Origin: Hemileia vastatrix
Taxonomy: Eukaryota; Basidiomycota; Pucciniomycetes; Pucciniales; Zaghouaniaceae
Direction: 5' to 3'
Length of the DNA: 64,000 bases
Assembly: GCA_030280995.1 (NCBI GenBank)
Contig: JASXTE010000001.1
Span: forward strand, 14,727,001 to 14,791,000
In this document: piece after piece, positions 3,155 to 42,921 of the stretch
Numbering within the stretch: the first letter of the stretch is position 1
Layout of the letters: every line of letters starts with the position of its first letter
Notes under the pieces: generated by a model
What the model saw: the letters and a program-made list of their open reading frames with translations, nothing else
What the model was told of the DNA's origin: nothing
The model's database searches: none
Program-made: the position numbers and the translations under genes

Positions 3155-4236
3155 TGTGGTCTTCCAACATTGGCAGAGGCCTTCATTGGGATGTTTGGCG
3201 CTGTTTTGGTATGTCTTAATCAACATTGGTTGAATAATTGGGTGTTTTCTGGTTTTATTCAGTGAATATTGGGACTATAGGTATGTGGATACTACCAATG
3301 TATAGCCACGGTTTTTATCTGTATTTTATGTCTTGTTGACATTTTTCATATTCTAAGTTTTAAGGGGTCATTTGCTCATTTTTCATTTCTAAAAGATAGC
3401 TGTTTAATTTTGTTTTTTGTGTTTTACAGGCTAACCTTAGGTCTTAGGGTTAAGTGCTTAGTACCATTAAGTAGAGCTAATTTGGCTCTATATTTTATGT
3501 CTCAATGTTGTCATAGCTTAATTTTGTGTTTTAAGGGTTTTAGTAGTCATGGTGGATTTTTCTAAGTATTTTGGGATTTATTGGAGGTTTTTGGTGGTTT
3601 TCTGGCTTCAGGGAGGTGTGGCCGCTTCTAGGCGGGCCATCTGCCTTGGTTATAGAAGGCTGGGGAGCACTTCTAGAGGGTTTATATTCAATTTGGCTGC
3701 CAAAAGTGCCAAATTTGTTGCTGTGCATGGATTTTCTAGATGGTGGTCTGTGTTTACATACTGAATAAGACAGTTTGGGGCAACTTTAACTATCATACAA
3801 CCATCCAGAAGTGATATCATTGTTTCTCACTCAGTTTTCACTGTTTTTTGGCCACAATTGGCTGTGTTTGTTTTAAGGTTAGTTCTTCATTTAACTCAAA
3901 TTTGGAAACTGGTTTCTCTGGTGTAGCTTTGCAACCTGCATCAAGTATTATTTCTGTTTTCTGTGCATTAAGTGCACAGTGTTTTGTTTTTCTGGTGTGG
4001 ATATTTCTGCATTTCAGGTTTCTGGTTCTTTGGTTCTCAGTGGTCTACTATTGGCTACTGTCTTGACTTGTTAAGCAGTCAAGAGGTGTTTTGGAAGGGG
4101 TATAGTAACAGTCTCTAATTTGCTGTAGCAAATAAATCTCACCTGGTATTACTTAAAGGGACAAGGGTTTTTCTCTCCAGTTTTATTCCAACTCCCTTGG
4201 TCAAGGCCTATAGCTAGTACTATAGGATTGTCTACA
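3155..4236 (+). repeat. 5' LTR of G1-1
   Basis: It begins TGTGGTCTTCCAACATTGG and ends GATTGTCTACA, the expected TG...CA. Its first 160 bases recur at 15285, and its last 80 bases (with TAAAGGGACA and GCCTATAGCTAGTA) recur at the end of the LTR at 18112-18985. A primer site lies 4 nt downstream. Open frames inside it (for example 3549-3764) are not credible genes. Confidence 0.85.
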
Positions 4237-4240
4237 TTTC

Positions 4241-4258
4241 TGGCACCCAACATGGGGT
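4241..4258 (+). other. Primer binding site of G1-1
   Basis: TGGCACCCAACATGGGG lies 4 nt after the LTR end. It starts with TGG, as expected for pairing to a tRNA CCA end, and resembles the TGGCGCCCAAC type sites of many LTR elements. The exact tRNA cannot be named without the tRNA set. Confidence 0.7.
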
Positions 4259-4307: not shown

Positions 4308-6119
4308 GTGGTTGGAAATTGGTTTTCTGGAATCTATTGGACCATAGCTTCTGGACCCTCTTTCTCTAGTGGTGGTAGTGGCACTGTTGGTGCTGCTGAG
4401 GATGGTAATCCTGCTGTTTATGTTTGGCCTTCTGCAAGGATCAAGTCCTGGAAGGGGCCTATGTTTATGGGGGAGGATGTGAAGTTGTTTTTGGAGCTGT
4501 TTGAGGCTGCTGCAAATGTGGATGGTGCTTCTCACTGGGATATGGTGAAGCAAGTCATCTTCTACATTGGTGACAGGGCTCTGGTGAAGGAAGTGGCTGC
4601 AATGGAGAGTTATAGGAGGAAAGATTGGAAAAAATTGTGTCTGCAGATGACAGACAGGTGGGGATCCAGGTACTCAATGGTGGATCTCAATATGATTGCA
4701 CGTGAATGGGAATCTTATGGAGGTGTGGACAACCTCCATACTTATAGGAAGTTTCTGGTTCAGTTGGAGCCAGTGGTTGAATATTTGGTGGATATGCAGG
4801 AGTTGGAGATTACTGAATCTGCAAGGAATATTTAATGATCTGCTTTGGCCAGGAATGTTAGGATTGATGTTTTAAAAGAGTTGGCAAGGAAGGATAAGAT
4901 GAAGATTCTTCCTACTGGCAATCAAAAATTGCCTGCTCTTTCTGTGGTGAAGGAGTTTGTAGAGGGACATCTGAAACTGTTGGCAGTGGATTCTTGCCAG
5001 GAAGCTAGCACCAAATATGTTAGCAAGGTCACTGAAGCATTTGCTGAAGATGTGGAGGAGTCCAGAAAGAAGGAAGTGGTGAAAAAGGGGAAGGCTCCTG
5101 AGAAGCCTAAAGAGGTTGATCCTGTAGTGGAGCAGTTGGCTGATCTGACAAAACAGCTACATATTTTTGTTCAGGAGGCTCAGAAGGTCAATAAGGCTCC
5201 TTCTCAGCCTAGAGATTTTGATAGGAGGGTTGGTAGGAGTGATCCTTGGGTCTGATCTTATTGCAGAAGGAAGGGCCACAAGTCCAATGATTGTTGGGCA
5301 CTGAATAGAGATGTGTCTGAAGGGAAGGCAAAATTTGATGGAAAAATGTTAAAGCTCCCAGATGATTCTTCTGTGAAGCCTAATTATGGTCAGGCTACAG
5401 TGGAATTGGTGAAGAGGAGACATAATGTCAACTCAAGGAGGCCAATATTTGAAGAGTTGCCTAATGAGGCTTCTTCTTCTGGAAAAGGTGGAGATGATGG
5501 CAAGGGAAAGGGAAAGGAGGCTAATAGAGTCTCATTTACATCTTCCTTTGGTGGCTTGGAGTTGTATTCTTGTGGTGGAAAGTCAAGTGGTGAATGCTTG
5601 GCTGGTGTTTATGATGTGGAAGCAGGAAAGGTGGGTAGGCCTAAGAGCAGTTGTCAGGCTTAGCCGAAGCCTAAGTTTTCAAAGGTGGATCCTAATCTGA
5701 GTGCAGCTAGGAAAAAGTACAGCAAAGAGGAGCTTTATATGATGCAGAAGGGTATGGAAGTAATGGGCCCCCCTATTTTTGGAGCATTAGACATGAATGG
5801 TGAGCCAATGCCTATGGATGTTGATTCTGACTCTGAGGAGGATGTCCCTTTGGCTTCATTGTCAAAGCCTGCTGGAGTTAGAGGTTCTGGTGAGGGATCT
5901 GGTTTAATTCCTGTTGATGGTAAATCTGTTGGTGGTTCTGGTCCTCAAGAATCTTCCAGGACCAAGGTAGTGAAGTAAAGAGCTCAATTTGAGAGGCTGG
6001 TGGTTTCTGGAAAAGTTAATTTTATGGACTCTGTCCTGGAAAGGATGAATCAGGGTCAGGTTTCCCTTACTTATGGGGAGTTGTATGCTATCAGTCCTGG
6101 GTGAGCTGATAGGCAGAAA
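4308..6119 (+). pseudogene. G1-1 Gag
   Basis: A single frame from the ATG at 4308 runs into the protease with in-frame stops at 4833 (TAA TGA), 5253, 5661, 5976 and about 6099 and no frameshift. Visible parts are a Gly/Ser-rich N-terminus, a capsid-like helical block (F-x-E-D-V-K-L-F-L-E-L-F-E, W-K-K-L-C-L-Q-M, W-E-S-Y), a Lys-rich charged segment, a zinc knuckle at about 5253-5295, and acidic Ser/Gly-rich tails. In the knuckle the first Cys codon position is TGA (stop-S-Y-C-x4-H-x4-C), so the stop removed a metal ligand. The product would form the virus-like particle. Confidence 0.8.
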
Positions 6120-6122
6120 AAG

Positions 6123-6662
6123 TTGTTGACCAGCAGAAGGGTATCTTCTGGGGAGGTAGAATACATTTGTGATTTTGCTGAAAAATTTGGTGAGGGTTTG
6201 GAAACTCATTATTCTGCACCTCTGGGTTATGTCAATGTCACCCTGAATGGCAGGGAGGCTAGTGAATTGGTGGATTCAGGTTCTCAGATTAACCTGATTT
6301 CTTTTCTTGAGGCTACTCATCTGGGCCTCCCCATCAAAACAGGTATTGGTGTAAATTTGAGAGCAATTGGTGGCAATTTCACTGAATTATTTGGAACATG
6401 TGAGTTTGTAAAGTTAGATGTTGGTGGAGCCTCAGGGGAGGTTCATTTTTACATTGCCAAAGGCACTGTAAAAGCTGTTTTGGGTGGGCCATTCTTGATG
6501 GATTTTCAAGCAAGAATTGGCTATCAATTTGATGTTGGAATTAGTTTGGAGTTGACTGGTGAAGATGAAAGGAGACTTCACATGAGGTTATCATCTACTG
6601 GAGAGGATGGTTGGGAAACCAGGTGTGGTTTGTCTTCAATGTGCCAGTGCATGGATTGTTGA
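6123..6662 (+). pseudogene. G1-1 aspartic protease
   Basis: It continues the Gag frame. The motif P-L-G-Y-V-N-V-T-L-N-G followed by E-L-V-D-S-G-S-Q-I-N-L-I-S is the retropepsin active site (D-S-G), and V-L-G-G-P-F-L-M-D-F is the flap/second hydrophobic-Gly region of this family. The same two motifs recur in the minus-strand remnant at 26940-27480, so the domain call is firm. The TGA at 6660 closes the frame. The enzyme would process Gag-Pol. Confidence 0.85.
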
Positions 6663-7337
6663 AGGAGAAGAAGAGAAGTGGGTGCTGCCTCTGGTTTTTT
6701 GGAGTGTGCCTCAGGCTCTAGTGGGAGTCTGTCTTTTTTAGAGTAATTAGGGCTGATCACCCAAGTGCTACAACCTCTCCCCAAGATGAGGAAATCCCAG
6801 GTTGTAGTAGGTCAGCTCACTTGGAGATATACCAAGTGGATTTTCAAATTTCTCTTTTTAATGTTTCTCTTCTCTGAAAGTATTCTTCAAGTTTTTTATC
6901 AAGTATCTGTTCTCACTCAAAATTTTCAATTATTTTTAATTCAACTTCAAACAAGAAGATTGGTTATATATCTTTATTGAAAGATATGCGGAAAAGCTGT
7001 GGAGTGGTGGGATTGGGGTCTAAAAGTAAGTCCTCCCAATTGTGCACCACTAGGGTTTATTCTACACCTTTCAAAAACATTACTTTGGAAACTTCTGTGA
7101 AAATTGGAGAAACCCCTAGTTATTTTTGTAGGATAGAAGAAAACTCAAGAAAAGAAAAGAAAAAATTCAAGATAACTGAAAAAAATCAAGAAAAAAATCT
7201 GAAGATAATCAAGAAAGAAGAAAAGAATTATTTTTGTGAAGATCATCAAGATCAATTTTTGTTCCTCCAGCATAAGGTTAAACTGCACAAACTTTTGAAG
7301 AAAGAGTATTAGCAAGATCAATTTTTAGGCCTCCAGC
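6663..7337 (+). other. G1-1 protease-RT linker with changed frames
   Basis: The reading frame drifts here (6765-6980, then 6977-7312 in another frame) and the composition becomes Lys/Phe-rich. A segment at about 6985-7130 is repeated at 7500-7650, and three 65-bp units sit between the copies (see the repeat entry). No domain is recognised. Confidence 0.5.
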
Positions 7338-7650
7338 ATGAGGTTAAACTGCACAAATTTGAAAAGAAAGAAGATAAGTAAGATCAATTTTTGGGCCTCC
7401 TGCATGAGGATAAACTGCACAATTTTACAAAGATGTGATTCAAAAGATGAATCTAGATTTGAAGGTTTAGAAGATGGAAGTGAGGATGAAGATGTGAAAT
7501 CACGGAAAAGTTTTGGAGTGGTGATATTGGGGAATAAAAGTAATTCCTCCCAATTGTGCACCACTAGGGTTTCTTCTACACCTTTCAAAAACATTACCTT
7601 GGCCACACATGTGAGCAATGGGGAAACCCTTGGTTTTTGTTCCAGGTCTG
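6985..7650 (+). repeat. Internal direct duplication and 65-bp tandem units
   Basis: A block of about 150 bases containing TCCCAATTGTGCACCACTAG and ACACCTTTCAAAAACATTAC occurs at about 6985-7130 and again at about 7500-7650, offset by about 516 bases. Between them, a unit starting AGATCAATTTTT and carrying CCTCCAGCATGAGGTTAAAC occurs three times, at about 7250, 7315 and 7381, a period of 65-66 bases. Confidence 0.8.
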
Positions 7651-8849
7651 GTGGTGAAGATGTCCTGAAGATCCCTCAAGTAGAAGCTGGAGCTGCAAAG
7701 TATAAGAAGTTAGCGCAAAAGATCAGGCCTTTCAATGGGCCTATGCCTGTAGGTTTGAATCCTCCTTTGAAGAGATCTCCATTGTCAAGTGATCTTTACT
7801 GTACTCCTCTGGTAAAAAATCCTCCTGATTTTGTGGAAACTGCTAGGGTGACTGTGGAAAGGTTGAAAGTTGTTAATTTTGGTCCTGATGGATGGTTGTC
7901 TGATGAGTAAAAGAAGTTGTTGTTGCATGTTATTGTGCTCAGGGAGAAATCTGTGGCATTTTTTGAGGAGGAAAGGGGTGTGTTGAAACACTCTTATGGG
8001 GAACCTTACTTGATTCCTGTGGTTTTTAACTAACCTTTACAAATCAAATGTATTCCAATTCCAGCTTCTATTATGGATGATGGTGTAGAGATTGTTAGGG
8101 AAAGAGTCAGGACTGGTTTATACAAACAGTAAATATCTAGCTACTCAAGTCCAGTTCTCTGTGTAAAGAAGCAGAATTGGAATCTGAGGGTGGTGCATGA
8201 TCTTAGATCCTTGAATAGAGTCACTATCAAGGATGCTGCGATGCCTCCAAGTGCAGAGGATTTTGTGGAAGATTTTGCTGGAAGAGTGTGTTATGGTTTG
8301 GGTGATATTATGGGTGGTTATGATGAAAGGGAATTCCACACAGATTCACAGCCACTTACAACGTTTGAGACTCCTCTGGGGAGTTTTCAGCTCACTAGGT
8401 TGCCTCAAGGAGAAACTAATTCAGTAGCAGTATATCATGCACAAATGGCTTGGATCTTACAGGATGAGGCTCCTACTCATACTGGAATTTTTATTGATGA
8501 TGGTTTAATCAAAGGACCATCCACTGATTATGGGAATGAGGTGCTGAAGGAGAATACTGGTGTAAGGAGGTTTGTTTGGAAGTATGCAATTACTCTAGAG
8601 AGAGTATTGTTTAGGATTGAAGAGGCTGGTCTGACCATTTCTGGGTCAAGATTTTGTTGTTGTGTTCCTGCTCTGAAAATACTGGGTCATGTGGTATGTA
8701 AAGAGGAAAGGATTATGGCAAAGAAAAAAGTTATAAAATTCAGTCATGGCCAAGGCCTAAAAATACTACTGAAGTCAGGGGATTTTTTGGGGTTTGTGTG
8801 TATGTCAGAATTTTTATTAAATATTTTTCTTTGCTGGCTATACCTTTGA
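7338..8849 (+). pseudogene. G1-1 reverse transcriptase
   Basis: Up to 8849 the frame matches Gag. The pre-RT part is 7338-7910 (TAA at 7908). The RT core includes V-V-H-D-L-R-S-L-N-R, then L-G-D-I-M-G-G-Y-D as the first catalytic Asp region, L-T-T-F-E-T-P-L-G, L-T-R-L-P-Q-G-E-T-N-S, and the active site G-I-F-I-D-D-G in place of the usual YIDDI. This wording is characteristic of a gypsy lineage abundant in basidiomycetes. Stops lie at 8032 and 8130, and a frameshift near 8735 moves the last part into the frame starting about 8798. Confidence 0.88.
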
Positions 8850-9709
8850 GGAAATTGACCAGGAAAGAAGCAGAGTGCGTATGGACTGAAGAGTGTGAAG
8901 AGGCTTTTCAGAAGTTGAAGAAGGTGGTAGGTAAGGATATTACTCTTCACAAGTTGTATTATGGAGTGGGCGCTGGAAAAATTTATCTGGAAGTGGACTG
9001 AAGTTATATTGCTGCTGGTGCTGTTTTGTCTCAAAAAGATAAAAATAGGAGGGTCAGGCCAGTAAGGTATGAGTCTGTGGTATTCAATGAGGTGGAATCT
9101 AGATATTCTAAACCTAAGTTTGAGTTGTGTGGTGTGGCAAAAATTTTGAAGAATCTGCAAACTGTTTTGTGGGGGCAGCATTTACAGCTGCAGGTGGATG
9201 AAAAATCTCTGGTTCAAATGATCAATACACCTAGTCTTCCAAATGCTCCAATGACTAGGTGGGTGGAATTTATTCAGCATTTCTCTTTTGACCTGGTACA
9301 CAAACCTGGAAAATTTTTTACAATTCCAGATGAATTATCAAGGAGACCACCTACAGATGAAGATTCAGACTCTGAAGAATTTGATGAAGATGTCCCAGTG
9401 GTTAGAGCCAGCACAAAGGATGCTGAAGATTTTTCTTTCCTCCCCCATGAGGATAAACTAGAAAATTGTTCTCTCCTCCCCCAAGAGGTTAAACTGGCTG
9501 GTTCTGATCTTGATTCTGGTTATCAGGATGTTTTTTCTGATGAAGATGGGGCTGTTGTTTGGGATGGCTCAAAATTAGATAATGGTATTTTTGTTAGTGA
9601 ACTGAATTTTCTTAAGATTCAGTGGAAGGAAAAGGATGTACAGAAATTTAGGAAATTGGTGTCCTGGTTGGGCTGGTCGTGTTTCTCATGTGCACACAGA
9701 AGATTTTGA
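8798..9709 (+). pseudogene. G1-1 RT thumb and RNase H
   Basis: This frame resumes after the shift near 8735 with V-Y-V-R-I-F-I-K, P-L-R-K-L-T-R-K-E and W-T-E-E-C-E-E-A-F, the typical connection to RNase H. RNase H then has an E-V-D-(stop)-S-Y-I-A-A-G-A-V-L-S start (the first Asp is kept), R-Y-S-K-P-K-F-E-L-C-G around the Glu, L-Q-V-D-E-K-S-L as the second Asp region, and P-D-E-L-S-R-R at its end. It degrades the RNA of the RNA-DNA hybrid. The spacer after it carries two in-frame copies of the hairpin motif encoding L-P-H-E-D-K-L and L-P-Q-E-V-K-L. Confidence 0.85.
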
Positions 9710-11033
9710 TGACAGGGTTGTACCCTTGAATTTTGTTTTGTTGGATTTTGAAGATGAGACCTGGGGTCATACTGGGTTTTATTTTATTAAGGTTGAATAT
9801 CTGTTAACCTTGGAGCCACCAGATATTTTTGATAATGATACTTGGGTGGAAATCAAGAAGAAGAGTCCTGGCTTCAATGTGTCAGGAAGGAGGTTGATGA
9901 GGAGGAGACATCCAAATCCTCAAGTAGTGGTGACTCAGAAGAAGGGTCAAGAGTTGTTATTGAAGTCTTTGCATGAAGACCTTGGTCATAGAGGTGTTGG
10001 GGAGAATTATAGAAGATTAGCAGATAGATTTTGGAGGCCAGGTATGAAGTTGGCTGTGCATGGTTGGGTTCAATCTTGTGAAGAATGTCAAATAAGAAGT
10101 CACTTAAAACCTAAAGAGGTTGGCTGTGCTACTGGTGAAACAACTTTGTTTGGAAGAGTCTGTCTGGATGCTGTCCATATTAAAGAGGGTAGGTATAAAT
10201 ACTTAATTATTGCAAGGGATGATTTGTCTGGTTGGGTTGAGGCAATGCCTCTGGTTAATTTGACTGCCAAAAATGTGGCAGAATTTTTGAAGAAGGAATG
10301 GGTGTTTAGGTATGGGTTGATGAAGTTGGTGACTGTTGATGGTGGGCCAGAGTTTGGAGCTGAATTTTAAGAAGCTGTGGCAAGTATTGGTTCTAAAGTT
10401 GGAGTGGATACACCTTATTATCCTGAAGCTGAAGGCATGGTTGAAAGAGGCCATTAAGTAATCAAGAATGCTTTGGTGAAACTGTGTGGAGATAGTTCTG
10501 AAAAATGGAGGCATTATTTACCCTTGGTGTTATTTGCTGATAGGGTAACTATGAAAAGGACAACTGGCTATTCCCCTTATGAATTAATGTTTGGGCAGAA
10601 AGATGTTCTACCAGAGTTTTTTGAAGCTGTCTCTTATCTTGGAATTGATTGGGATGATGTGTGCTCAACAGAAGATTTGCTCTGTGCCAGGATGCAACAG
10701 TTGAAATTTAAAGAGGAATGTCAAGAGAAGGCATACTCTAGAATGATGAATATAAGAAATCAATCAGTTATATACTTGGACAAGAAGTTGGCTAATAGAC
10801 TCAGGAGTCCCTTGAAGCCTGGTTGTTTGGTTTTGGTGTATAACAGAAGCTTGGAGAGTCAGTGGGGAAAAATGTTTGAAGACAGATGGAATGGACCTTA
10901 CAGAGTCAGATCTCAGGTGTCTGGAGGTTCTTATGTTTTGGAGGAGTTAGATGGTGCAGTCTTAAAGAAGAGAGTGGCTTCTGATCAGGTGAAGAGATTT
11001 TACCCAAGAGGCACTAGAATTGAAGAAGATTAA
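9636..11033 (+). pseudogene. G1-1 integrase
   Basis: The frame returns to the Gag frame. The HHCC zinc domain is visible as L-H-E-D-L-G-H-R-G-V and S-C-E-E-C. The core shows L-D-A-V-H-I (first Asp), V-T-V-D-G-G-P-E-F (second Asp) and G-M-V-E-R-G-H (Glu), so all catalytic residues are present. Stops at about 10369 and 10456 fall beside the catalytic Glu region. The C-terminus (W-N-G-P-Y-R-V-R, V-K-R-F-Y-P-R-G-T-R) is the usual SH3-like tail, with no chromodomain. Stop TAA at 11031. Confidence 0.88.
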
Positions 11034-12130
11034 CTCCACAATGAGGATAAACTATGGACCATTCTTTAATTTTGGATTTTTGGTGATGCTCGGCATCTGT
11101 TTTGTTGGAAACTTTTTTTGTTAGAATGTACCCATGGGTGGGGCTTCTAGATTTGATCTTGGCAAGTGTGAGGGTAACTGATGAGCTGACTGCTCTGTAG
11201 AACAGTTACCTCAGATTGTCTGTTTCAAACCCCTTCTCTTAATTTGGTTGAATCCTAGTATTGATTTTTCTTCACAGGTTTTGTCCTCTATGACTTTAAA
11301 CTTGAAATTCTTTTGGTCTTCAAGTGCTGGACTCTTCACACTTATTGGTTTTGGTTCATTGTGTTGGATGTTGTGTATTTGTTAGAGGGTACCCAGGGGG
11401 GGGGGCTTCAGGATTTTATTTTGGCAAGTGTGGGGGTAACTGATGAGTTGGCTGCTCTGTAGAACAGTTACCCCATAATTTCTGTTTCAAGTTTCTGTTT
11501 GTCCTAGTTGAATCCTAGTTCTTGTTTTTTTATTCAGATTTCAAATCCACTATGACTTTATACTGGCTTACTGGCTTGGGATGGGCTTCTTTGGTTTATT
11601 TGGATTGGTGGTGGATCACTGGTGGTCGCCCATTATTTTTACTTATTAGAGGGAGCCCACCCAGTGATCATTTCCTTGGACTGGAATTTCTATGGAGCTG
11701 GATTTTTTTTCTTTCTTTTATTTTTGTGTCTATGGTTGTGTTAGATAGAAGTTTTAGATTATTTTCTTTTTTATCTTTTTTTCTTTTAATTTTTTATGGG
11801 GGTTATTAGGATATAAAGAGGAGAAAAATCACAAAATTATATTATATGGTTTCACCAAATCAGGGTCACCTGGATGTGAGCAAGAATTGGTGAGGAAAGG
11901 CTCATCAATTGACTTGGTAATGCTATTTTCTTTTTATCTTTATTTCATGATTATTATTTACTTTAATTTCTACTCATTTCATCTTATCTTTATTGATATT
12001 AAGTTTCTTAATTTATTTTTATCTCAGTTAATTTAAAATTATTTTATGGTGTATCCACATCAAGGTGCACTTGGATGTGGGTAAGGTATCAGGGGATCAG
12101 CTCATCAATTGGCTGGGGGATACCATTTGT
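11034..12130 (+). repeat. G1-1 3' noncoding hairpin array
   Basis: No ORF is credible here. In order it holds: the hairpin-tail motif (11034-11055); two copies of a hairpin with arms GGGGTAACTG and CAGTTACCCC (11170-11212 and 11433-11474); GTCC-type hairpin-tail motifs (11283-11304 and 11541-11564); a hairpin with arms GATCACTGGTGG (11614) and CCACCCAGTGATC (11657); a degenerate module at about 11850-11930; and a hairpin with arms GGTATC (12085) and GATACC (12119). The same order recurs at 15818-16970 and 21961-22735. Confidence 0.8.
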
Positions 12131-12583
12131 AATTATTAATTTTTTCATCTTACTATTATTCATTTAATTTTAATCTCTCAGCTCTCATATTTTGTTGGGC
12201 AATTTTGTTTAATTATGTTCAAGTTTTTTTTAGTATGTTAGTAGTTTAGGTAATAAAAATATAAAAAATAAAAAATAAAATAAAAGAAAAAACAAAAATA
12301 AAAATAAAAATAAAATAAATTTATATATATATATATCTGCTATTTATTATTTTTCTCTCTATTTAGTGAATTAATAATTTATTTATTTATTTAATGTCTG
12401 GAAGAAGAAGCCTCTGGTGGGTGGTCTGGATTATGGTGGTGTTTTTGCTTTTTTTTTGGAATTGGAGGAAGAACTGTGTTCTTTGTGGTTTAGGCTTCTG
12501 GAAAGAGTATATGGATTGTAATGGTCAGGAACCGGATTAGAAGGTAATTTTTGTGAATAAGTGGAAGAAGAGGGGATAGAGTT
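12131..12583. repeat. AT-rich stretch with simple repeats
   Basis: The stretch 12259-12340 is a run of A-rich AAAATA units followed by (TA)n. The remainder is AT-rich with no ORF I can support on either strand until the antisense ORF-b stop at 12584. Confidence 0.7.
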
Positions 12584-13952
12584 TTAAAAGGTGTGCTTGA
12601 TTATTCTAGATATCTTCCAGTGGTCATAAAGGAGCTGTTTTCTCAGATTCTTTTCAAATATATTCAAAGGACCATGAAGAGCAAAGGCCTTAAGCATGTT
12701 TGAACACATCATGCTTAGGTGTTGTTTTATGTTGGCGTAATCCAGTGTTAAGGGAGTTTCTAGAGGTTGGCCAATCCAAATTTCAGTTTCAGGAGGCCGG
12801 GTTCCAAATAAACAGAAGAATTGGATCAGTAATTGTTTTCTTTTGAAGAAATTGGATTAATTAATTTGGTACTTACAGATTCAAAGCTCATCAAATTTGT
12901 AAGAGGCTGGGATTTGGGCTTCTGAAGAATTTTGAATTGATAATGTAGGAGGATCAACCATATGGAGGTATGAATTCTCATGAAAATTCTCTAAAGGGTG
13001 TTCAGAAGATGAAAAAGAAGGAGGACGTTCCTGTGGCCTGGATGTAGCAGCAGGGCTGCTGTTGTTGTTGATATTGTATTTTGGCCAAGTTGGGTCAGAT
13101 ACTGGTGGTGGGGTACCAGGTTGGTTGTAGGATGGACCAGGAGAAGGTGACCTGGAAGCTGATTGGGATCTTCTGGATGAAGATCTGGAAGAAATTGAAC
13201 TGTCAGAGGAGTAATTGGCTGGCAGAAGAGAGGTGTAGTTGGCTCTTCTTGTTTGAGATGAAGATTTTTGTCTGGGAGCAGTGTTGAGTGCTCTGGTGTC
13301 TTCTTGAGGTCCTCTGGCAGGTCTTCTAGTATTTTGGAATTTTTGGAATTTTTTGATGAAGAAGTTATTGTGCGCATTGCTCTGGGAGCATTAGGAGGCT
13401 TTTGTGTGGAGTTTTTGGTGTTTAATAGTGGATTTTAGCTGTTTTCTGGCTGAATTTGGAGGTTTTGAGCCTAATTACCGCTTCATAGCAAGGTGGGCGG
13501 ACCACCTGGATGTGGTATAGCAGCCTGGGAGCTGATTTTGAAGCTGTTTTAGCTGAATATTCTGAGATAAATTCTGTTTCTTGAGAGGATAAAGCAGGTC
13601 TTTTGGAGATAGTTCTGGGGACAGAGCGGCATGATCTTCTGGATGGAGCTGAAGATAGAGAAGAGGAAGAAGGACCTAGTTCTGGGGATCTGGTATGAGA
13701 TCTAGAGATGTATTTGTGTGAAGGTGAAGGTGGTGGTATAGGATAATTGGGGTCTCTGTCACATTTTTTCCTTTTGGAGTTGCAAGAATTACAGGCTCTG
13801 TTGTAGAGTTTTGCTTCAAGAGTTGGAAGAGTGAAAGTGAAAGGTCTGCACATGTGGATGCAATGTTTGCAAGCATAGTACTTGGGAGAAGTGAAACAAG
13901 GAAGGTCTGATGGGTCAAAATCTGGGAATCTGGCCATGATCTGTGATGGCAC
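12584..13952 (-). pseudogene. Antisense ORF-b, cysteine-cluster protein (G1-1)
   Basis: Read on the minus strand from the ATG at 13952 (or M-A-R-F at 13937). The N-terminus has C-K-H-C-x3-C, then N-R-A-C-N-S-C-x6-C with K-R-K-K between the last two Cys, like the basic half of a fungal Zn2Cys6 cluster. A Ser/Arg/Pro-rich tract follows. After a frame change near 13400 an open frame runs to 12881 with another Arg/Ser-rich tract (R-S-S-S-R-R-S-Q-S). A GTAAGT (12876-12871) could be a splice donor; beyond it a helical basic block ends at 12584. A copy at 23004-24060 keeps N-R-A-C-F-N-C and a similar C-terminus. A nuclear DNA-binding role is inference. Confidence 0.5.
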
Positions 13953-14092
13953 AACAATGAAAAGAAAAGAGATAAAAGAAAATTTTTATCAGTGATGGGT
14001 AGATGATGAAGAGAAAGTTGAAGCTCAGTAGGGTGGTTCCGGAGTATTGTGCATGGAATTGGCTCTGTTCTTTTATGCAAAGTGTGTAAAGT

Positions 14093-14522
14093 ACGTCAAG
14101 ACTTTAAACTGAACACTGTGGTCAGTATTTCAAGACTTTAAACTGAAAAATGGTATAGTCCCCCAAGACTATAAACTGAGGATTGTTTGATGGTTGAGTC
14201 CTTCAGGACTATAAACTGATAATGTGATGTTGGTGTAATTCTGGAAGAGGGCATCCAAAGGGGGAGTCTCTGAATTTAGTTAAGGCAAGTGTGGGGGTAA
14301 CTGACAAGCTGGCTGCTCTGTAGAGCAGTTATCCCAGAATGTTAGTTTCCTTTCTTTGGTCTTTAATGGTTTGATCTCTGGTTTTGTCTTTATGATTTAG
14401 ATTTTGGGTCCCCCAAAACTATAAACTGAGGGTTTTTGAGTCCCCCAAGACTATAAAATGAGGGCTGTTAGTCCCCCTAGACTTAAAACTGAGGATGAGT
14501 CCCCCAAGACTATATACTGAGG
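14093..14522 (+). repeat. Cluster of AGTC-loop-GACT hairpin-tail motifs
   Basis: Eight copies (about 14093, 14123, 14156, 14195, 14406, 14438, 14469 and 14498) of the form AGTC-N6-GACT-ATAAACTG. The 14195 copy has a perfect 5-bp stem, AGTCC/GGACT. A GGGGTAACTG/CAGTTATCCC hairpin (14294-14335) lies inside the cluster. The cluster sits between antisense ORF-b and ORF-a. Confidence 0.8.
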
Positions 14523-14611
14523 AAATTTTTTATGGTTTGCTACATTTAGAAAGTCTGGAAAGTTTTCAATTTTTTTTTATTTCTAAGTCAAGAATTTCAG
14601 GCAAGAATTAA

Positions 14612-15236
14612 TTACATAAGAGAATCAAGAGATGAAACAAAGTATTCAGCATTAGTCTTGAACTGGTGGATGAGGTGTCTTCTTTTCTCAATTTCCTGTG
14701 GATCTTTGGCAGGAGTGGATTGAAAGTAGTTTAGAATGAGATGTTTTTGTTGAGAAGAGTGTTTTTGGAAATTGTCCTTTATGGTGGGTAATTGATTGAC
14801 TGGTGGTGTTTCAATGGTTCCCACATTGTCATCATCACTGTCTGGATGGGAATCAACTGGAAATTCATCAGCTTAAATTTTAGTATAGAGAAGCATTGGT
14901 TTTGCCATCAGAAGGACAAGGTATGATAGAGCTAGTGGTTTTAGTGGTGTTGGCACTCTTTTTTGAAGGGTGTAACTTGTTGATTAATTTGGGTATCAAG
15001 ATGGAAGGCCTAGATCTTTTGGTTTTGCTGGAAGAAGGACCAGGTTGAGAGGAAGGTGAATCTGTTGCAGATGATAATGGACCAGGTCTGAAGCAATATT
15101 TCTTTCTGGAATAGTAAGCATCACAAGAAGATATGTATAGATGAATTGGGGGTGTTATGTTACAGATGAGGTTACAGTCAATACAGTATTGACATGGACC
15201 TCTTTCAGAGATTGATTTTGAAAAATGTGTGAACAT
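14612..15236 (-). pseudogene. Antisense ORF-a, cysteine-cluster protein (G1-1)
   Basis: It starts at ACCATG (15236; an in-frame ATG also exists at 15266), 48 bases from the 3' LTR. N-terminus M-F-T-H-F, then C-Q-Y-C-x6-C, 12 residues, and C-D-A-Y-Y-S-R-K-K-Y-C, a second Cys group whose middle Cys is Tyr. A Ser/Pro-rich linker holds K-R-S-R-P-S-I, which could act as a nuclear signal. The first frame stops at 14880. The conserved second part (D-D-D-N-V-G-T-I-E-T-P-P, Y-F-Q-S-T-P-A-K, K-R-R-H-L-I) ends at 14612 in another frame. A 34-bp gap (14905-14872) with a GC donor and AAG acceptor would join them in phase. Function unknown. Confidence 0.6.
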
Positions 15237-15284
15237 GGTGGTTTTGGTGAAGGAGAATGCAGACATTCTTAATTGGAGGGAGGA

Positions 15285-15445
15285 TGTGGTCTTCCAACAT
15301 TGGAAGAGGCCTTTTTTGGGCTGTTTGGTGCTGTTTTGGTGTGTCTTAATTGATATTGGTTGAATAATTGGGTGTTTTTCTGGTATTATTCAGTGAATAT
15401 TGGGACTATGGGTATGTGGGTACTGCCAATGTATAGCCACGGTTT
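15285..15445 (+). repeat. 3' LTR of G1-1, truncated
   Basis: It matches the first 160 bases of the 5' LTR from TGTGGTCTTCCAACATTGG to GTATAGCCACGG, then diverges abruptly. A purine-rich tract GGAGGGAGGA just before it is the likely polypurine tract and also serves as antisense leader for ORF-a. Confidence 0.8.
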
Positions 15446-15817: not shown

Positions 15818-16970
15818 CCTCCAAAATGAGGATAAACTACTTAATTTATTTTGGTTTTGTTTAATTTGGGCAGGATTTTTTTTGTTTTGTCCAATTCTTA
15901 TCAGTCTCTCTGGTTCAAGTATCTATATATAAATATAAAAAAGATCTTAGTATAATGAAGATGGAAGAAAAGAAAAATTCAAGTGAAGATGGAAACTTTA
16001 TTTAAAAGAAAATGAAGATAAAAATGAAGTTTATTGATTTTATTGTACCTCCAGCATGAGGTTAAACTGCAATTTCAAGAATTTTAACTGTTTTGGTTTT
16101 TTATGGGAGAAGATTTGTGTTGGAAAATTCTTTTTTTAGATGGTACTCAAGGGTGGGGCTTCTAGATTTGATTTTTTCAAGTGTGGGGGTAAGTGATGGG
16201 CTGGCTGCTCTATAAACAGTCACCCCAGATTGTCTGTTTCCAACCCCTTTTCTTAATTTGGTTTAACCCTAGTATTGGTTTCTTTTTTCAGGTTTTGGTC
16301 CTCTATGGATTTAAACTGGGTTTCTTTGGTCTTCATGTTCTGGTCTTTTAATGGTGGTTTTTGTGTTGATTGGTTGAATTTTGAGGTGTATTCTTGGTTA
16401 GAAGGTACCCAGGGGGGATTCTAGATTTTGCATAGGCAAGTGTGGGGTAACTGATGAGCTGGCTGTTCTGTCTAACAGTTACCCCAGAATGTCTGTCTCA
16501 AATTATTGGCTTTATATGGTTGAATTCTAGTTCTGTGTTTGTGATACAGGATTTTAGTCCTCTATGACTTAAAACTGGATTGGACTGGTTCCTTTGCTTT
16601 GGATGTCTTTTGGTGCTTTTGGATTGATTGTGGATCACTGGTGGTCTCCCATCATTTTTACTTATTGGAGGGATCCCACCCAGTGATCTTTTCTGTGGAC
16701 ATGGATCTGGCTCTTTTATGTGGCTTTAAGGTGTTGGCTGTAAAATTGGTGGATTCAAGATTATTTTCTTTTTTCTCTTTTTTTCTTTTAATCTTTTTAT
16801 GGAGGCTATGAATGTTCAAAGGGTCAAGATAGGGTTCTGGAAATGTTTTTGGTGGAAGAGGAGGAGTACAAATAAAAATAATTTATTTAAGGTGTTACCA
16901 CATTAAGGTGCACTTGGATGTGAATAAGGTATCAGGGGATCAGCTCATTAATTGGCTGTGGGATACCATT
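15818..16970 (+). repeat. G1-2 3' noncoding hairpin array
   Basis: Same order as in G1-1. Hairpin-tail motifs lie at 15818 and 16048. The GGGGTAA-type hairpin lies at 16186-16226 (two arm mismatches) and 16444-16485 (perfect). GTCC-type motifs are at 16297 and 16555. The GATCACTGGTGG/CCACCCAGTGATC hairpin is at 16633-16688, and GGTATC/GATACC at 16928-16967. Confidence 0.8.
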
Positions 16971-17441: not shown

Positions 17442-18064
17442 TTACAGAAGGGTATCAAGGGAGGAAGAAAAATGTTCTGAATTGGCATTGAACTGTTTAA
17501 TGAGGTTCCTTCTCTTATCAATGTTTTGTTGGTCCTTGGAAGGAGTTGATTGGAAGTAGAAAAGGAGGAGCTGTTTTTTTTGTTGGTGATGTTGAAATTT
17601 TTCTTTGGAAAGAGGAATTGAGTTTGGGGGTGGTGTTTCAATGGTTCCTAAATTTTCATCATCATCAATAACTGGTGGAAGGGAGGCTGAGAAAATGGTC
17701 AGTCTAGTTTAGCAGAGAGAAAAGGAATCTTACCTTTTGGGGACTCAGGGTGATAAGAGGAAGAACAGGCTGAAGGAGTTACAGGCATTCTTCTGGAGGA
17801 ATGGAGTCTGTTGATTATTTTTGGAAAGGTGATAGAGGGTCTGGACCTTTTGGTAGAAGAGGATGGACTAGGCTGAGCAGAGGAGGAAGCTGAAGAAGAG
17901 GATAGTGGGCCAGTTCTTTGGAATTGTTTCTTCCTGGGTTGGTAAGCATCAAAAGATGTTCTGTAGATGTGTAGTGGTCCAGTCATTGAACACAGGAGAT
18001 TTTTTTCAATGCAGTATTGGCAAGGGCCAAGGCCAGAGGCTTGTCTGGAGAGGTGTGTGAGCAT
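17442..18064 (-). pseudogene. Antisense ORF-a, cysteine-cluster protein (G1-2)
   Basis: It starts at ACCATG (18064), matching the G1-1 start: M-L-T-H-L here, M-F-T-H-F there. C-Q-Y-C-x6-C is kept, but all three Cys of the second group are replaced (F-D-A-Y-Q-P-R-K-K-Q-F). The Ser/Pro linker with K-R-S-R-P-S-I is kept. A GTAAGA donor and TTTTCTCAG acceptor define a possible 47-bp phase-1 intron (17733-17687). Joined across it, the frame runs A-S-L-P-P-V-I-D-D-D-E and on through G-T-I-E-T-P-P, Y-F-Q-S-T-P-S-K and K-R-R-N-L-I to a TAA at 17442, without a stop. Only the cysteine loss argues against function. Confidence 0.6.
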
Positions 18065-23003: not shown

Positions 23004-24060
23004 TCATTTAACTTCTTTAAATTGATGAGGTTGTTTATGTTCAAGCCAAGTGTCCAATTTAAAGTGACATTTCAAAACTTTCTCTTTTGCAAATACTTCT
23101 GCACAATCTTTTAGTGGATAATCTTCATAATGGGGCAGTTTAGCATTGTAAATAGAATATAATTGTTTAAAAACATCATAACATTTTACCATAGCTGAAG
23201 TGGGTTCTGGATCAGGGATAAAATAAGCAACCAGAGAATAATAGGATCCACAAGAATCTAAATCAGGTCATCAATAAAAATCAAGGGATAAACTTAAAAG
23301 AAGAATGAAAATCTTAATTGCTTACTAGAGTCAACTGTGTCAATCTCAAGATTTTAGGGCAGGTTTTGCAGAAATTTTTCTTCAAGAAGGGAAGGGTATT
23401 AACTCTCAATGTTGTGATATAAAGGTGGTTTTAGGAAAGTTAGGATGTCTCTGGAAGGAGCAGGGATTGGAGATCCATTAACTGTTAGCATATTTCTTTT
23501 CTTATTTAAAATTATTGGAGGAATAGGAGAGCTGGGTCTTTTTGATGAAGAAGAAGGACAATGAGGGCTTCTAAATTTAGTTTGAGAAGTAATAGGTTTT
23601 GTTATAGGAGGTGGAGAGAAAGTAGAAGGAGAAAAATCCAGAATTGATTTATGTGGATTAAATATTGCTTTTTGGAGCAGTTTCAGTTCCAGGGATTACA
23701 GAAGAGAGTCTTTATTGAAGAGAAGGAGCAGCACAAAGAGAAAAAGGAGGTGCACCCAGAGATTTATAGTCAGAAGGAAGATTCAAAAAGGCTGATGGTG
23801 TGAAACAAGTAGAAATTTTAGAGGTGGAATATTTTTGAGAAGGAGTAGAAGGCTTCCATTGGGAGGCAAAGCTGGTATCAGGAAGGGGGAATGAGCCATA
23901 TTTAAGGCCAGAGAATTTTCTCTTCTAGTAAAAGCAGTTGAAACAGGCCCTGTTGTAGGTATATGTTTTCTGGTTATAAGTGTAGGTGCACTCTTGATGG
24001 GTAAAGGAGCAGTATTCATAGGCTTGGTCACTAGAAGAAGTGAATTTGGAAGGAGTCATC
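23004..24060 (-). pseudogene. Antisense ORF-b, cysteine-cluster protein (G1-3)
   Basis: It starts at the ATG at 24058 on the minus strand. The N-terminus has Y-E-Y-C and, 13 residues after a Q-E-C, N-R-A-C-F-N-C-F-Y-stop-K-R-K, which aligns with N-R-A-C-N-S-C-N-S-K-R-K-K-C of G1-1 ORF-b. A Ser/Pro-rich middle with many stops follows. A 62-residue C-terminal frame (23192-23004) contains M-V-K-C-Y-D-V-F-K-Q-L-Y and V-F-A-K-E-K-V-L-K-C-H-F. The aligned parts support a shared antisense gene; the middle is too decayed to read. Confidence 0.45.
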
Positions 24061-25059: not shown

Positions 25060-25735
25060 TCAAAATAAATATTCCCTTTGGAATCTTTCAACATCATTAT
25101 CAAATCTTTTCATCAAAATTCTTCTTTTCATTAAATCTTCAGTATTATTAGCAGGAGTTTCCTGAAAATAAGTTAAAAATTTATGTTTCATATCATCTCA
25201 AAAGTTAAGAAAGAGATATCTATGAAACTTAGTATAATGATTAAGGTAATCATTCTTCACCTTTCCAACATCATTTGTATTGGTGATTTTAATAGCTTAG
25301 GAGTTGGAAGAGATAGTAGATGGATTTGGAACTAGTAAGAGAATTTTTAAATTAAAATTAAAAGATTAACCTTTTGATCCAGGAAATAATGTTTCAGAAA
25401 AACTGAATGGGGAAACTGGCATAATAGGATTAGGGTCTTGAGATGGAGGAGGAAGCTCAGGATTAGGATTTTTAGAAGAAAAAGCTGCTTTGGCCTTTAT
25501 ATAACAAAAAAAGGTGGTTATTTTTGATAATCTCTTTTTAGTAACAGTGGGATCAGGAAGAGTGGCTGGTCAAGTATAGAAGTTAGTTCTGGAAGGTATA
25601 ATTGGATGATTACACTTGATTCTCTTAAGCCTGCAAAGATCACAGGCAGCTCTTCCAGGAAGACCAGGGTTAAAAATCAGACAAGGAACCTAGTATTTGG
25701 CACAAAGTTCACATGGGACAGTAAGGTCTTTTTAT
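25060..25735 (-). pseudogene. Antisense ORF-a, cysteine-cluster protein (G1-3)
   Basis: This copy keeps the best cysteine pattern: C-E-L-C-x6-C (one x is a stop), 12 residues, then C-D-L-C-R-L-K-R-I-K-C, closely resembling the basic half of Gal4-type Zn2Cys6 domains. A Ser/Pro-rich linker follows. A GTTAAT donor and CTTACTAG acceptor bound a 39-bp gap (25370-25332) at the same place and phase as in G1-2. After it comes one frame with two stops to K-H-K-F-L-T-Y-F-Q-E-T-P-A and K-R-R-I-L-M-K-R-F, ending at the TGA at 25060. No ATG is preserved. DNA binding is inference from the cysteine pattern. Confidence 0.55.
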
Positions 25736-25899
25736 GAAATATTGATGATGATAGTTATTAAAAATAATAATAATAATGAATGTGGAAATATGCAGGACTA
25801 GTTAAGGTGATTGGTTGAAGAGGATGAAAAGAGGATGAATATATGAACAATTAATTATGCAAATTTAAAGAATGAGTAAATTCTTCATTGGAGGGATGA

Positions 25900-31500: not shown

Positions 31501-31602
31501 TAAATATTTTTATTTTATCTCTTAATTTTTTTTTAAAAAAAGAATAATAACTGACAAAATATTAATTTTTTTTTCTTTCTCTCAGCTCAAGTTATACAAA
31601 CT

Positions 31603-33465
31603 ATGGCTGAATTAAATATTTCTACCATCCATGATGAGGAATTGGATCTTATTGATTATGATGCAAATTCTGTAAGTTCTCCTTTGAATACAAAATTTTC
31701 TCAAATTAATCAATTAGTAAACCAAACAGGATGTAGAAATTCAGGAGGTTGAAATCAATAAGGAACATCTTCCCATGGACTCCAAGTCCCAGATACCCCC
31801 TCCTATTAGAGCTTCCAAAATTCTTCAAAATAAAAAAGGTTCCAGTTCAACAACAGATAAACAACCTGTTAACTTAAATCAAGTAGTTGAAGTCAGAGAA
31901 CCTCAAAATAAGGGAAAGGGTAGAGTACTTAGAAGAAAGAATAAGAAGCATGGAAACTTTTCTTCAAGAGAAGAAACATCCACAGGGAGCAAAACCCCTT
32001 CCACAGTGGGCTACTCAACAAAAAGAAAAAGTGGAAGTGTCAAAATGGAAATGGCAATGGCTGAACAACCAATTGGAATCCCTTCAGGCTCAACAAATGC
32101 AGCAGGCTCCTCAAGCAGGACCCTCCAGGCACCAAAAATTCAATACCACCCCTCATCACCCTTACCAAGGAGGCAGAAGAAAGAAAAAAAATCATCTTCA
32201 AATTATTCCAAAACCATGGTAAGGCCTTCCATTTAATCTCAAGTTCTTTTCCTTGTTACTGATTCAGTTCCTTCAGGTAACTCTGGGATGGTAGATAAAA
32301 CCTTGAGATCAGTTTAAGCTGGTTCTAGCAAGAAAAGTGATCTATGTTCTAGTCTTGTAAATACTCCTTTAGTGTTAATTTATACTTCAATGATAAATAT
32401 AGAGATGGCTATTATAGATGAATCAGTTGATCCTGAAGTTCATGAGACTCTTGAAATTCACTCTATATCTCTTTTGAGAAATGCTCCCCATGTAGTAACT
32501 ATTAATGATCAATATTTGAGAGACATCATCACAAAAAAACTATATAATGAATAACTTACAATTGACCCAAAAATTTAATAGCTTGTTAACTGAAAAAGGT
32601 TACCAATCATTGAGAGGAGAGTTGAATAGGGTATCTGATGAATTTTTTAGGTACAAAGTAAATTATGAAATAAAATTAGCTTTGTGAATAAGTATTAGGA
32701 ATGATCTATCCAAAGTACAAGAGACTATGTCTATCTGTTTCCAAGAGTTAGAAGGTCAGAAATTAAATTTGAAAAAATTAAATGACCATTATTCATCTCT
32801 AAAAAATAAGAATCAATAATCTATTGAAACCATCAATGAAACATTAACAAGTATTCCAAGGGTGAAAACTAGGTTAACAAAAATTGAGGAACAATTGAAT
32901 TCATTATTATTTGACCAAAAATACTCTTTCACTTCAGAGAAGGAAACTTTTTCACAGGCTACTCCACATGTACCTGAGCCAAGCTCCTCTAGAGAAGAAT
33001 TAGTACAAGAGGAAGCTGTAGATAGTTCTGAGTTTACATAAAAAATTGATGATGCACCCTGTTCATCTTCAAATGTGTTAAATAATGAGATTACTGCTCA
33101 ATTAGAGAAATTGAAACTTCTTCTTACACAGAGAAAAGTAAGCCACTAGGAAATTACCTCAAATTAGAAAAATTGGCCCAAACTTGACCAATATCCAACA
33201 TTTGATTGTGATTCTTCATCTGATTGGAAACAATTCATATGCAGAATTGATAATCTAAAAAAATCTTATAAACTACCTGATGAAGAAATTGTGTCTAAAC
33301 TTATTTCTTTTTTTTCAAATTTTGCCCTCATGTGGTATGAATCTGTCCTTTTGCATAATAATAATTACTCTTTGGAGGATTGGAAAAAATTAATTAAACC
33401 TCAATTTGGTCGTTCAAAGTTTAGGTTAGCTCAACAAAGGAAGTATGAGGAGTCTAGATATAGCT
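31603..33465 (+). pseudogene. D Gag, 5' part (cut by element A)
   Basis: The ATG at 31603 opens an acidic frame (M-A-E-L-N-I-S, D-E-E-L-D-L-I-D-Y-D). It shifts at CCAAACAGGATG (about 31728), then once more before 31887-32222 (S-E-N-L-K-I-R-E-R-V, F-L-Q-E-K-K, ending F/P-K-P-W at ATGGTAAG). A further frame from 32217 carries coiled-coil sequence and a retrotransposon Gag block (33180-33465, with F-A-L-M-W-Y-E-S-V-L-L). The first and third breaks are shared with element A. It ends where the A LTR begins. Confidence 0.75.
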
Positions 33466-34275: not shown

Positions 34276-34299
34276 CTCCCTCACTCTAAAAAAACAATA

Positions 34300-36045: not shown

Positions 36046-36090
36046 ATGTCTTTAAGGTGTTTTCAAGTTTAAGAGGGATTTAACTGCACT

Positions 36091-37703: not shown

Positions 37704-37712
37704 AACAGAGAC

Positions 37713-40331: not shown

Positions 40332-40439
40332 AGTTGTAATTAACCTGAACTGAGAGAAAGAAATAATAAAATTTGATTAGTTATTATTTTTACTTTATTT
40401 AAAGAAAAAAAAGGAAATTTTTTTTCTATAATATAAGTA

Positions 40440-40930: not shown

Positions 40931-41372
40931 AACTAAAATAATTTAAAAAAATAATATAAAATAATTAATTTAAATTTTAATATTACTTATAGGACTAAGA
41001 CCAATATAGTTCTATCTTGGTCAACTAGGGAAAAAAAAACATTTTATTTAACAGGCACCTCCACCTGTGAAATGAGCAAGTTAATGTCACTTACAGAGTG
41101 CTGAGTAAAAAAGATATATGTGGACAATGAAGTATGTAAAATGATCCACAAATAGTAATCAATATAATTACCAAGAATATATATGACTATTACCAATATA
41201 TGAACCTAAATTTTGGAGTGCAGTTTGATTCCCAGTTTCAGCAAAAAAACAAGTCACCTGGTTGATGACGTTTGTTATCTTCTTCATCTACTTGTCTTAT
41301 TGGTACCTTTTTGTTGATGGTCCCTCAGTCACTGGCTTCAAGATATCAATGTGCCGTCAACAATTTGGAAAG

Positions 41373-42915: not shown

Positions 42916-42921
42916 AAACTT

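What the first reader, a model, noticed from the sequence alone, without database searches (positions are those of the whole stretch)
12584..15266. Two antisense genes encoding cysteine-cluster proteins in the 3' region of a Ty3/gypsy family
Between integrase and 3' LTR of the G1 family the minus strand carries ORF-a (next to the LTR) and ORF-b. ORF-a recurs at 17442-18064 and 25060-25735 and ORF-b at 23004-24060, in the same place. Conservation is at protein level (C-Q-Y-C-x6-C; Y-F-Q-x-T-P; K-R-R-x-L; N-R-A-C-x-x-C), while the DNA differs widely. Antisense ORFs are known in some plant LTR elements such as Grande and RIRE2, but I know of none encoding zinc-cluster proteins in a fungal gypsy element. 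A self-encoded regulator of the LTR is a reasonable hypothesis.
Basis: partly seen in the sequence, partly recalled or inferred. Interest (0 to 1): 0.88.

Follow-up and report, generated by a model that had tools for sequence, protein, structure and literature searches.

The report
Antisense zinc-cluster genes in a retrotransposon
A very abundant jumping gene in a large (probably fungal) genome carries, on its opposite strand beside its right end, one or two small genes that selection has kept as proteins; they resemble half of the Gal4 DNA-binding zinc cluster, which suggests the element makes its own nuclear regulator.

Summary
The window element has a 5' LTR at 3155-4236, pol, a 4.2-kb pol-to-3'LTR region and a 3' LTR from 15285. 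Two genes lie antisense in that region. ORF-a starts about 50 bp from the 3' LTR and has two exons, with an intron at the same place and phase in two element families. ORF-b is one long frame in related copies but is split in window-type copies by a shared 19-nt deletion. Variants shared by at least 5 of 27 copies avoid amino-acid changes in exactly the minus-strand frames (N/S 0.23; singletons 1.03; p about 1e-12, CpG columns excluded). dN/dS between subfamilies is mostly 0.06-0.3. Both proteins carry C-x2-C-x6-C twice. One family's ORF-a passes the Pfam Zn_clus cut-off, but with the Gal4-like basic half second. Antisense genes in this position are known in plants and in fungal Boty, so this is a new variant of a known kind. 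No transcript, DNA-binding or regulatory evidence exists; self-regulation of the LTR is inference.

The parts
3155..4236 (+). 5' LTR (TG...CA), followed by a putative primer-binding site at 4241-4257
   Evidence: matches the LTR found downstream of ORF-a in six of six wide-flank copies; ends read
6105..11033 (+). pol: protease, reverse transcriptase, integrase (decayed, several ORFs)
   Evidence: Pfam Asp_protease_2, RVT_1, Integrase_H2C2; rve and other protease models below their cut-offs; ORFs
12391..13937 (-). ORF-b: Zn-cluster N-terminus, Ser-rich middle, conserved C-terminus; split here by a shared 19-nt frame-shifting deletion and stops
   Evidence: the lower end is by homology (sequence)
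13641..13937 (-). ORF-b Zn-cluster part, C-x2-C-x6-C-x15-C-x2-C-x6-C
   Evidence: shared-variant N/S 0.14 against 0.86 for singletons; dN/dS 0.06-0.18 between subfamilies
12590..13000 (-). ORF-b conserved C-terminal part
   Evidence: shared-variant N/S 0.14 against 0.99 for singletons, p 1.2e-6
14906..15236 (-). ORF-a exon 1 with the zinc-cluster motif (upstream in-frame ATG at 15266)
   Evidence: shared-variant N/S 0.30 against 1.34 for singletons, p 2.9e-5; six Cys columns kept in 18-23 of 26 copies
14857..14905 (-). ORF-a intron, 49 nt, phase 1 (donor GC in the window, GT in most copies)
   Evidence: GT 24 of 26, AG 24 of 26; length varies between subfamilies with exon phase kept; homologous introns of 82, 86 and 90 nt in G2 copies L031, L041, L042
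14612..14856 (-). ORF-a exon 2 (YFQ.TPA...KRR.L motif)
   Evidence: shared-variant N/S 0.30 against 1.02 for singletons, p 0.0052; found in G2 by profile, E 1e-8
15275..15284 (+). polypurine tract abutting the 3' LTR, between ORF-a and the LTR
   Evidence: sequence; the 15-base PPT+LTR string occurs exactly in 13 of 42 loci, including both families
15285..15445 (+). start of the 3' LTR, truncated
17469..18061 (-). second ORF-a (exon 1 18061-17789, exon 2 17663-17469) in a related element
   Evidence: tblastn 56% and 61% identity; profile E 3.6e-34 and 2e-30
25060..25740 (-). third ORF-a (G2 family), decayed
   Evidence: profile hits; dN/dS against L041 0.21 and 0.10, dS near saturation
23910..24047 (-). 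ORF-b-like Zn part in the G2-family element
   Evidence: profile hit E 3e-4, the only place found

Best explanation
The element is a Ty3/gypsy retrotransposon that carries one or two antisense accessory genes between pol and the 3' LTR. Shown: both have been kept by selection on the protein while the element multiplied, ORF-a in at least two element families, and ORF-a has the anatomy of a spliced gene. Inferred: an antisense RNA starting in the 3' LTR (ORF-a's start codon is about 50 bp from it in G1 and 124 bp in G2) is spliced to give ORF-a, and a second antisense RNA or read-through gives ORF-b. Inferred: the proteins enter the nucleus and bind DNA through a Gal4-type zinc cluster whose halves are in swapped order, with the C-terminal parts pairing the proteins or binding partners. 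Most likely use: tuning transcription of the element's own LTR, or of the repeated palindromes between pol and LTR, much as the antisense HBZ protein does for HTLV-1 (HBZ role recalled). Rough odds: coding and selected 0.97; zinc-dependent DNA binding 0.65; regulator of its own element 0.45.
For: N/S contrast of shared against singleton variants in 27 copies, pooled over four exon parts 65 N/72 S against 598 N/170 S, p 1.9e-12. Without CpG columns: 51/63 against 519/142, p 9.9e-13, singletons neutral at 1.03. Pairwise dN/dS among win and L043-L046, without the close L045-L046 pair: ORF-a exons 0.18-0.43, ORF-b Zn 0.06-0.18, ORF-b C-term 0.10-0.48; a between-gene stretch read in an arbitrary frame gives 0.65-1.34. 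G2 ORF-a 0.10-0.27, pol 0.16-0.21. Intron at the same site and phase in G1 and G2; in G2 its length is 82, 86 and 90 nt (three different remainders mod 3) with the exons open on both sides each time. Stop-free hits in the aligned part, my counts from the tables: 90 of 150 for ORF-a exon 1 G1, 126 of 150 for ORF-a exon 1 G2, of which 36 share one score, identity and aligned length, 122 of 150 for the ORF-b Zn part; each table holds only the 150 scored of 8639, 8581 and 7858 candidates. L041 has an open 1397-aa frame over the RT-integrase region and open ORF-a exons. Zn_clus 22.0 and 25.8 bits, cut-off 21; PPR1 E 0.0023 and GAL4 E 0.07 on the basic half. ORF-a and ORF-b domains align by profiles, probability 94%.
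Against: No RNA, protein, DNA-binding or phenotype data. Zn_clus's best stretch matches less than half its profile, and ORF-b and the G1-type L043 ORF-a fall below the cut-off (9.6-14.6 bits); window ORF-a and ORF-b gave no Zn_clus hit. The half order differs from Gal4. ORF-b was not found by profile in the G2 copies L031, L041 and L042, so it is not always needed; the window subfamily multiplied with ORF-b split, and no wholly intact ORF-b was seen. One plus-strand frame shows a weaker echo (pooled 0.53, p 0.0035; 0.26 for the ORF-b C-term, p 1.5e-4). Copies share ancestry, so p values are too small. Close pairs give higher ratios: L045-L046 ORF-a 1.39 and 2.36 on dS 0.05 and 0.03; win-L026 ORF-b Zn 0.46 on dS 0.14.
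Confidence: 0.6

Rival explanations
1. The antisense proteins serve the retrotransposition cycle directly (nucleic-acid chaperone, nuclear import of the pre-integration complex, integration targeting) and not transcription. The Cys/basic motif binds nucleic acid without sequence preference.
For: Selection on ORF-a is about as strong as on pol. Plant antisense aORF proteins have been suggested to help nuclear steps (PMC7264820, first two of three parts read). ORF-b has a basic KKQK tail in L043-L046.
Against: The basic half resembles sequence-specific Gal4 and PPR1. The gag/nucleocapsid role normally lies on the plus strand (general knowledge).
Confidence: 0.25
2. The genes act against the host: antisense factors that repress host genes or silencing.
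For: Retroviral accessory and antisense factors act on host pathways (passages in PMC11963269).
Against: Nothing in the sequence points to a host target.
Confidence: 0.12
3. Only the antisense RNA matters (dsRNA trigger) and the proteins are incidental.
For: Antisense transcription alone can regulate elements (PMC7264820).
Against: N/S and dN/dS show selection on the amino acids in the minus frames, and the between-gene region shows none.
Confidence: 0.02
4. Chance ORFs mirrored from a plus-strand coding constraint.
For: One plus frame shows a weaker N/S deficit (0.26 for the ORF-b C-term, p 1.5e-4; 0.42 for ORF-a exon 2).
Against: Plus frames hold a median of 3-8 stops per copy; the minus frames 1-2 in these decayed copies. 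Splice sites and cysteines are conserved on the minus strand.
Confidence: 0.01

Closest known systems
Plant Retand/Grande/RIRE2 antisense aORFs (gypsy, pol-3'LTR)
   Same: long pol-3'LTR region, antisense gene(s) kept in most copies, tandem repeats in the same region; Retand TRP28 predicted to bind DNA (PMC11963269, abstract and passages); Grande GENE23 nuclear (PMC7264820)
   Different: no TRP28 (PF04195) match here; here there is a Gal4-type zinc cluster, two probably paralogous genes and a conserved intron
Boty (Botrytis cinerea) antisense gene brtn
   Same: fungal gypsy element with an extra antisense gene between pol and 3' LTR (PMC7264820 Figure 1 legend and text; PMC8365987 passages)
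   Different: one gene; I saw no sequence or domain for brtn, so homology is untested; the primary paper (Zhao 2011) was not seen
HTLV-1 HBZ
   Same: antisense gene driven from the 3' LTR coding for a nuclear regulator (antisense 3' LTR promoter and nuclear localisation seen as passages; splicing and bZIP nature recalled)
   Different: HBZ is a bZIP protein of a retrovirus (recalled); no homology claimed
Gal4/PPR1 Zn(II)2Cys6 domain (PF00172)
   Same: C-x2-C-x6-C twice, basic half CDLCRVKKLKC like Gal4 CDICRLKKLKC
   Different: the basic half comes second; the best Pfam stretch covers profile positions 1-15 of 39 (a second stretch in L041 is counted but not shown); spacing 12 (ORF-a) or 15 (ORF-b)

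Membership tests
Ty3/gypsy LTR retrotransposon | LTRs with TG...CA, PBS, PPT, PR-RT-IN order | tested here: met
   RNase H not separately tested; no RT tree built
Antisense aORF-3R elements (Grande/RIRE2/Retand/Boty type) | gene antisense to pol between pol and 3' LTR, present in most copies and conserved as protein | tested here: met
   six of six wide-flank copies have the LTR beside ORF-a, four of six have pol matches upstream; L041 has both; selection. Share of all copies in the genome not measured
Retand | antisense protein with TRP28 (PF04195) | tested here: not met
   no such hit in Pfam scans of ORF-a and ORF-b pieces
Zn(II)2Cys6 (PF00172) | score above Pfam gathering cut-off | tested here: inconclusive
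   met for G2 ORF-a (22.0 and 25.8 bits, cut-off 21); not met for L043 ORF-a (14.6) or ORF-b (9.6, 9.9, 11.8); no hit for the window's own ORFs
Zn(II)2Cys6 (PF00172) | six Cys, C-x2-C-x6-C-x5-12-C-x2-C-x6-8-C (pattern recalled) | tested here: met
   met for ORF-a (spacer 12), each Cys kept in 18-23 of 26 G1 copies; ORF-b spacer is 15, outside the recalled range
Zn(II)2Cys6 (PF00172) | basic half first, as in Gal4 | tested here: not met
   basic half at query residues 39-53 (L031) or 31-46 (L041) aligns to GAL4 9-24; the other C-x2-C-x6-C lies before it
Zn(II)2Cys6 transcription factor | zinc-dependent DNA binding and transcription control | not testable with these tools
   -
HBZ-like antisense regulator | antisense transcript from the 3' LTR | not testable with these tools
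   no RNA data available here

The most novel reading that the evidence does not exclude
A gypsy retrotransposon lineage encodes on its antisense strand a pair of duplicated, swapped-half Gal4-type regulators that recognise palindromic repeats in its own pol-3'LTR region and LTR. This would be a self-encoded feedback circuit, an independent counterpart of HTLV-1 HBZ outside retroviruses.
Probability: 0.3. Interest if true: 0.85.

Novelty: new variant of a known kind. Interest (0 to 1): 0.72.

Why it matters
The function of antisense genes of LTR elements is an open question in plants and in Boty (PMC7264820). Here is a very abundant family with copies whose ORF-a is open, selection on the protein comparable to pol, a conserved intron and a recognisable DNA-binding signature, so transcription and binding become directly testable. 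If the proteins regulate the element, Gal4-type regulators would also be genes of transposons and not only of hosts, and the many copies of such DNA-binding genes could spill over onto host promoters.

Tried and rejected
An intron joining the two halves of ORF-b was sought. The scan printed no pair of sites that passed its filters. The idea was dropped once searches showed a frame that runs on through the join in other copies, and a 19-nt deletion in window-type copies. A canonical-looking intron at about 12876 was set aside because the frame is open straight through it in L043, though several window-type copies share a stop inside it.

Homologue searches: ORF-a (L031) 0 of 29 candidates at E 1; ORF-b (L043) 0 of 6082 candidates at E 0.1; integrase 11 hits of 294 candidates, ten without an informative name and one named a Xanthomonas transposase family protein. 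That collection may hold few eukaryotes, so absence there means little. No structure prediction was run: the tool's listed sources do not name genome-fetch loci, and the window copy has lost a cysteine. An NCBIfam scan of L041 ORF-a gave nothing above a cut-off.

Literature searches whose listings showed nothing on zinc-cluster antisense genes of retrotransposons. In some searches only 10 of 64, 8 of 10 and 5 of 158 matching papers were listed. A repeated inverted repeat was folded as RNA, z-score -0.2.

Full report
What is there. The window lies in a 747.6-Mb genome in 791 contigs, organism unnamed. It then has a putative primer-binding site, protease, reverse transcriptase and integrase on the plus strand, 4.2 kb without plus-strand pol, a purine tract and a 3' LTR that starts at 15285 and is cut off at about 15445. 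The region 12584-15266 has 42 further matching places in the genome at 75-90% identity, some of them pieces of one copy; 40 of 7,553 first-look candidates were scored. I fetched 27 further copies and wide flanks of six. Six of six wide-flank copies have the same LTR next to ORF-a; four of six have pol matches on the other side, while the C121 and C260 copies do not in what was fetched.

ORF-a. Copies agree on a minus-strand gene that starts at 15236, with a second in-frame ATG at 15266. Exon 1 ends at 14906, a 49-nt intron follows, and exon 2 runs to about 14612. Of 26 copies with the region, 24 have GT and 24 have AG at the two ends; the window itself reads GC at the donor. In L025-L028 and in L045 and L046 the intron length differs. 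A second element family, G2, has both ORF-a exons open in L031, L041 and L042. There the intron is 82, 86 and 90 nt, starts GTAAGA, ends TTCTAG, and sits at the homologous site in the same phase; the three lengths leave three different remainders on division by three, so the two open exons fit only if the intron is removed. Pol DNA of L041 is about 75% identical to the window's G1 pol. Profiles from G1 exons find the G2 exons (best E 2.7e-7 for exon 1 and 1e-8 for exon 2). The G2 start codon is 124 bp from the LTR in all three.

ORF-b. The Zn-cluster part (13937-13641) and a C-terminal part (13000-12590) are conserved; the Ser-rich middle shows no constraint. In the seven window-type copies that I translated the two parts are in different frames. 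In the genome-wide list some copies have longer open frames, up to 453 aa. I fetched the five longest. In L043-L046 one frame runs on through the join. L047, the window and two window-type copies aligned with them lack the same 19 nt, and by length all 28 window-type rows lack it. This frame-shifting deletion probably arose more than once. None of the five fetched copies is wholly intact: L043 and L046 have in-frame stops before or in the C-terminal part, and in L044 and L045 the frame shifts.

Selection. Variants seen in one copy only reflect decay after insertion; variants shared by many copies reflect change in the multiplying lineages. Of 28 rows I dropped L013, a 99% duplicate of L011. 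With CpG columns removed, singletons in the four exon parts give N/S = 1.03 relative to opportunity and variants in at least 5 copies give 0.23 (51 N/63 S against 519 N/142 S, Fisher p 9.9e-13). Four of the five other frames give 1.16-1.45 and one plus frame 0.53 (p 0.0035). Each part is significant alone (p 0.0076 to 1.2e-6). At a threshold of 8 copies the pooled result holds (p 1.9e-5), but ORF-a has too few variants to say anything (3/1 and 0/0). Variants in exactly two copies did not follow the pattern (ORF-a exon 1 ratio 2.42). Shared ancestry makes these p values optimistic. Plus-strand frames have median 3-8 stops per copy, the minus frames 1-2. Pairwise between subfamilies (win, L043-L046) the ratio is 0.18-0.43 for ORF-a, 0.06-0.18 for the ORF-b Zn part and 0.10-0.48 for the ORF-b C-term, leaving out the close L045-L046 pair. 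That pair gives 1.39 and 2.36 for ORF-a on dS 0.05 and 0.03, and 0.14 and 0.39 for ORF-b. The stretch between the genes, read in an arbitrary frame, gives 0.65-1.34. With L047 and L026 added, the Zn part gives 0.07-0.20, except win-L026 at 0.46 on dS 0.14. In G2, ORF-a gives 0.27 and 0.17 (L041-L031) and 0.21 and 0.10 (against the window G2, dS near saturation); pol gives 0.16 and 0.21.

Intact and young copies. By my own count of the tables, 90 of 150 ORF-a exon 1 G1 matches, 126 of 150 ORF-a exon 1 G2 matches and 122 of 150 ORF-b Zn matches have no stop in the aligned part; only exon pieces were searched. In one search, 36 rows share one score, identity and aligned length, as expected of a recent burst; I did not check that they are identical. 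L041 has an open 1397-aa frame over the RT-integrase region and open ORF-a exons. One G1 copy (L033/L034) has LTRs 92.7% identical, so that G1 insertion is old.

What the proteins are. ORF-a has C-x2-C-x6-C-x12-C-x2-C-x6-C; ORF-b has the same with a spacer of 15. G2 ORF-a passes the Pfam Zn_clus cut-off (22.0 bits in L031; 25.8 in L041; cut-off 21). L043 ORF-a (14.6) and ORF-b (9.6, 9.9, 11.8) do not, and the window's own ORFs gave no Zn_clus hit. The matched part is the basic half: profile positions 1-15 match residues 31-45 of L041, and the best solved-structure matches are PPR1 (E 0.0023) and GAL4 (E 0.07) with L031, weaker with L041 (E 0.004 and 0.36). In Gal4 this half comes first; here it is second, after a non-basic C-x2-C-x6-C. 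Since the two halves of the Gal4 cluster are alike (recalled), a swapped order could still bind two zincs, but this is inference. ORF-a and ORF-b domains align to each other (hhalign 94% for G1 ORF-a, 44% for G2 ORF-a; few rows, E values uncalibrated), so they probably arose by duplication.

How it may work. Shown: two antisense, selected protein genes, one with a conserved intron, beside the 3' LTR. Inferred: transcription from an antisense promoter in the 3' LTR, nuclear entry, zinc-dependent DNA binding and control of the element's own expression. [quoted passage not shown]

What is known. [quoted passage not shown] Retand antisense genes encode TRP28, predicted to bind DNA (PMC11963269, abstract and passages). 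Boty's gene is brtn (PMC8365987, passages; the primary paper not seen). None of the passages that I saw names a zinc-cluster protein, and the listings showed none; that library lacks most subscription papers. I therefore rate this a new variant of a known kind.

Noticed in passing
window 11434-11473, 16445-16484 (degenerate copies near 11171, 14294, 16179, 22253); [quoted passage not shown] the pattern is exact in 25 of 42 loci, some of which overlap, and 0 of 100 shuffles of the window reached its 2 matches.
   Followed up: partly
window 14090-14520: Short direct repeats of the type CCCCCAAGACTATAAACTGAGG between ORF-a and ORF-b, like the tandem arrays of Retand.
   Followed up: no
window 7242-7439: Three 66-bp tandem units with CTCCAGCATGAGGTTAAACTGCA before the RT domain (D20); LQQEVKLQ-type repeats in the N-terminal part of L041's open frame look like the same units.
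   Followed up: no
window 14000-14570 compared with L043-L046: The stretch between the genes diverges less (about 0.1-0.4) than synonymous sites of the exons (mostly 0.4-1.3) in the same pairs, as if it were constrained or exchanged between subfamilies.
   Followed up: no
L047, window-type copies: The same 19-nt deletion in ORF-b appears in two subfamilies, flanked by short repeats; possibly recurrent slippage in reverse transcription.
   Followed up: partly
window 31517-46839: A large inverted arrangement with arms up to 974 nt, 70-90% complementary, looks like two related elements in opposite orientation.
   Followed up: no
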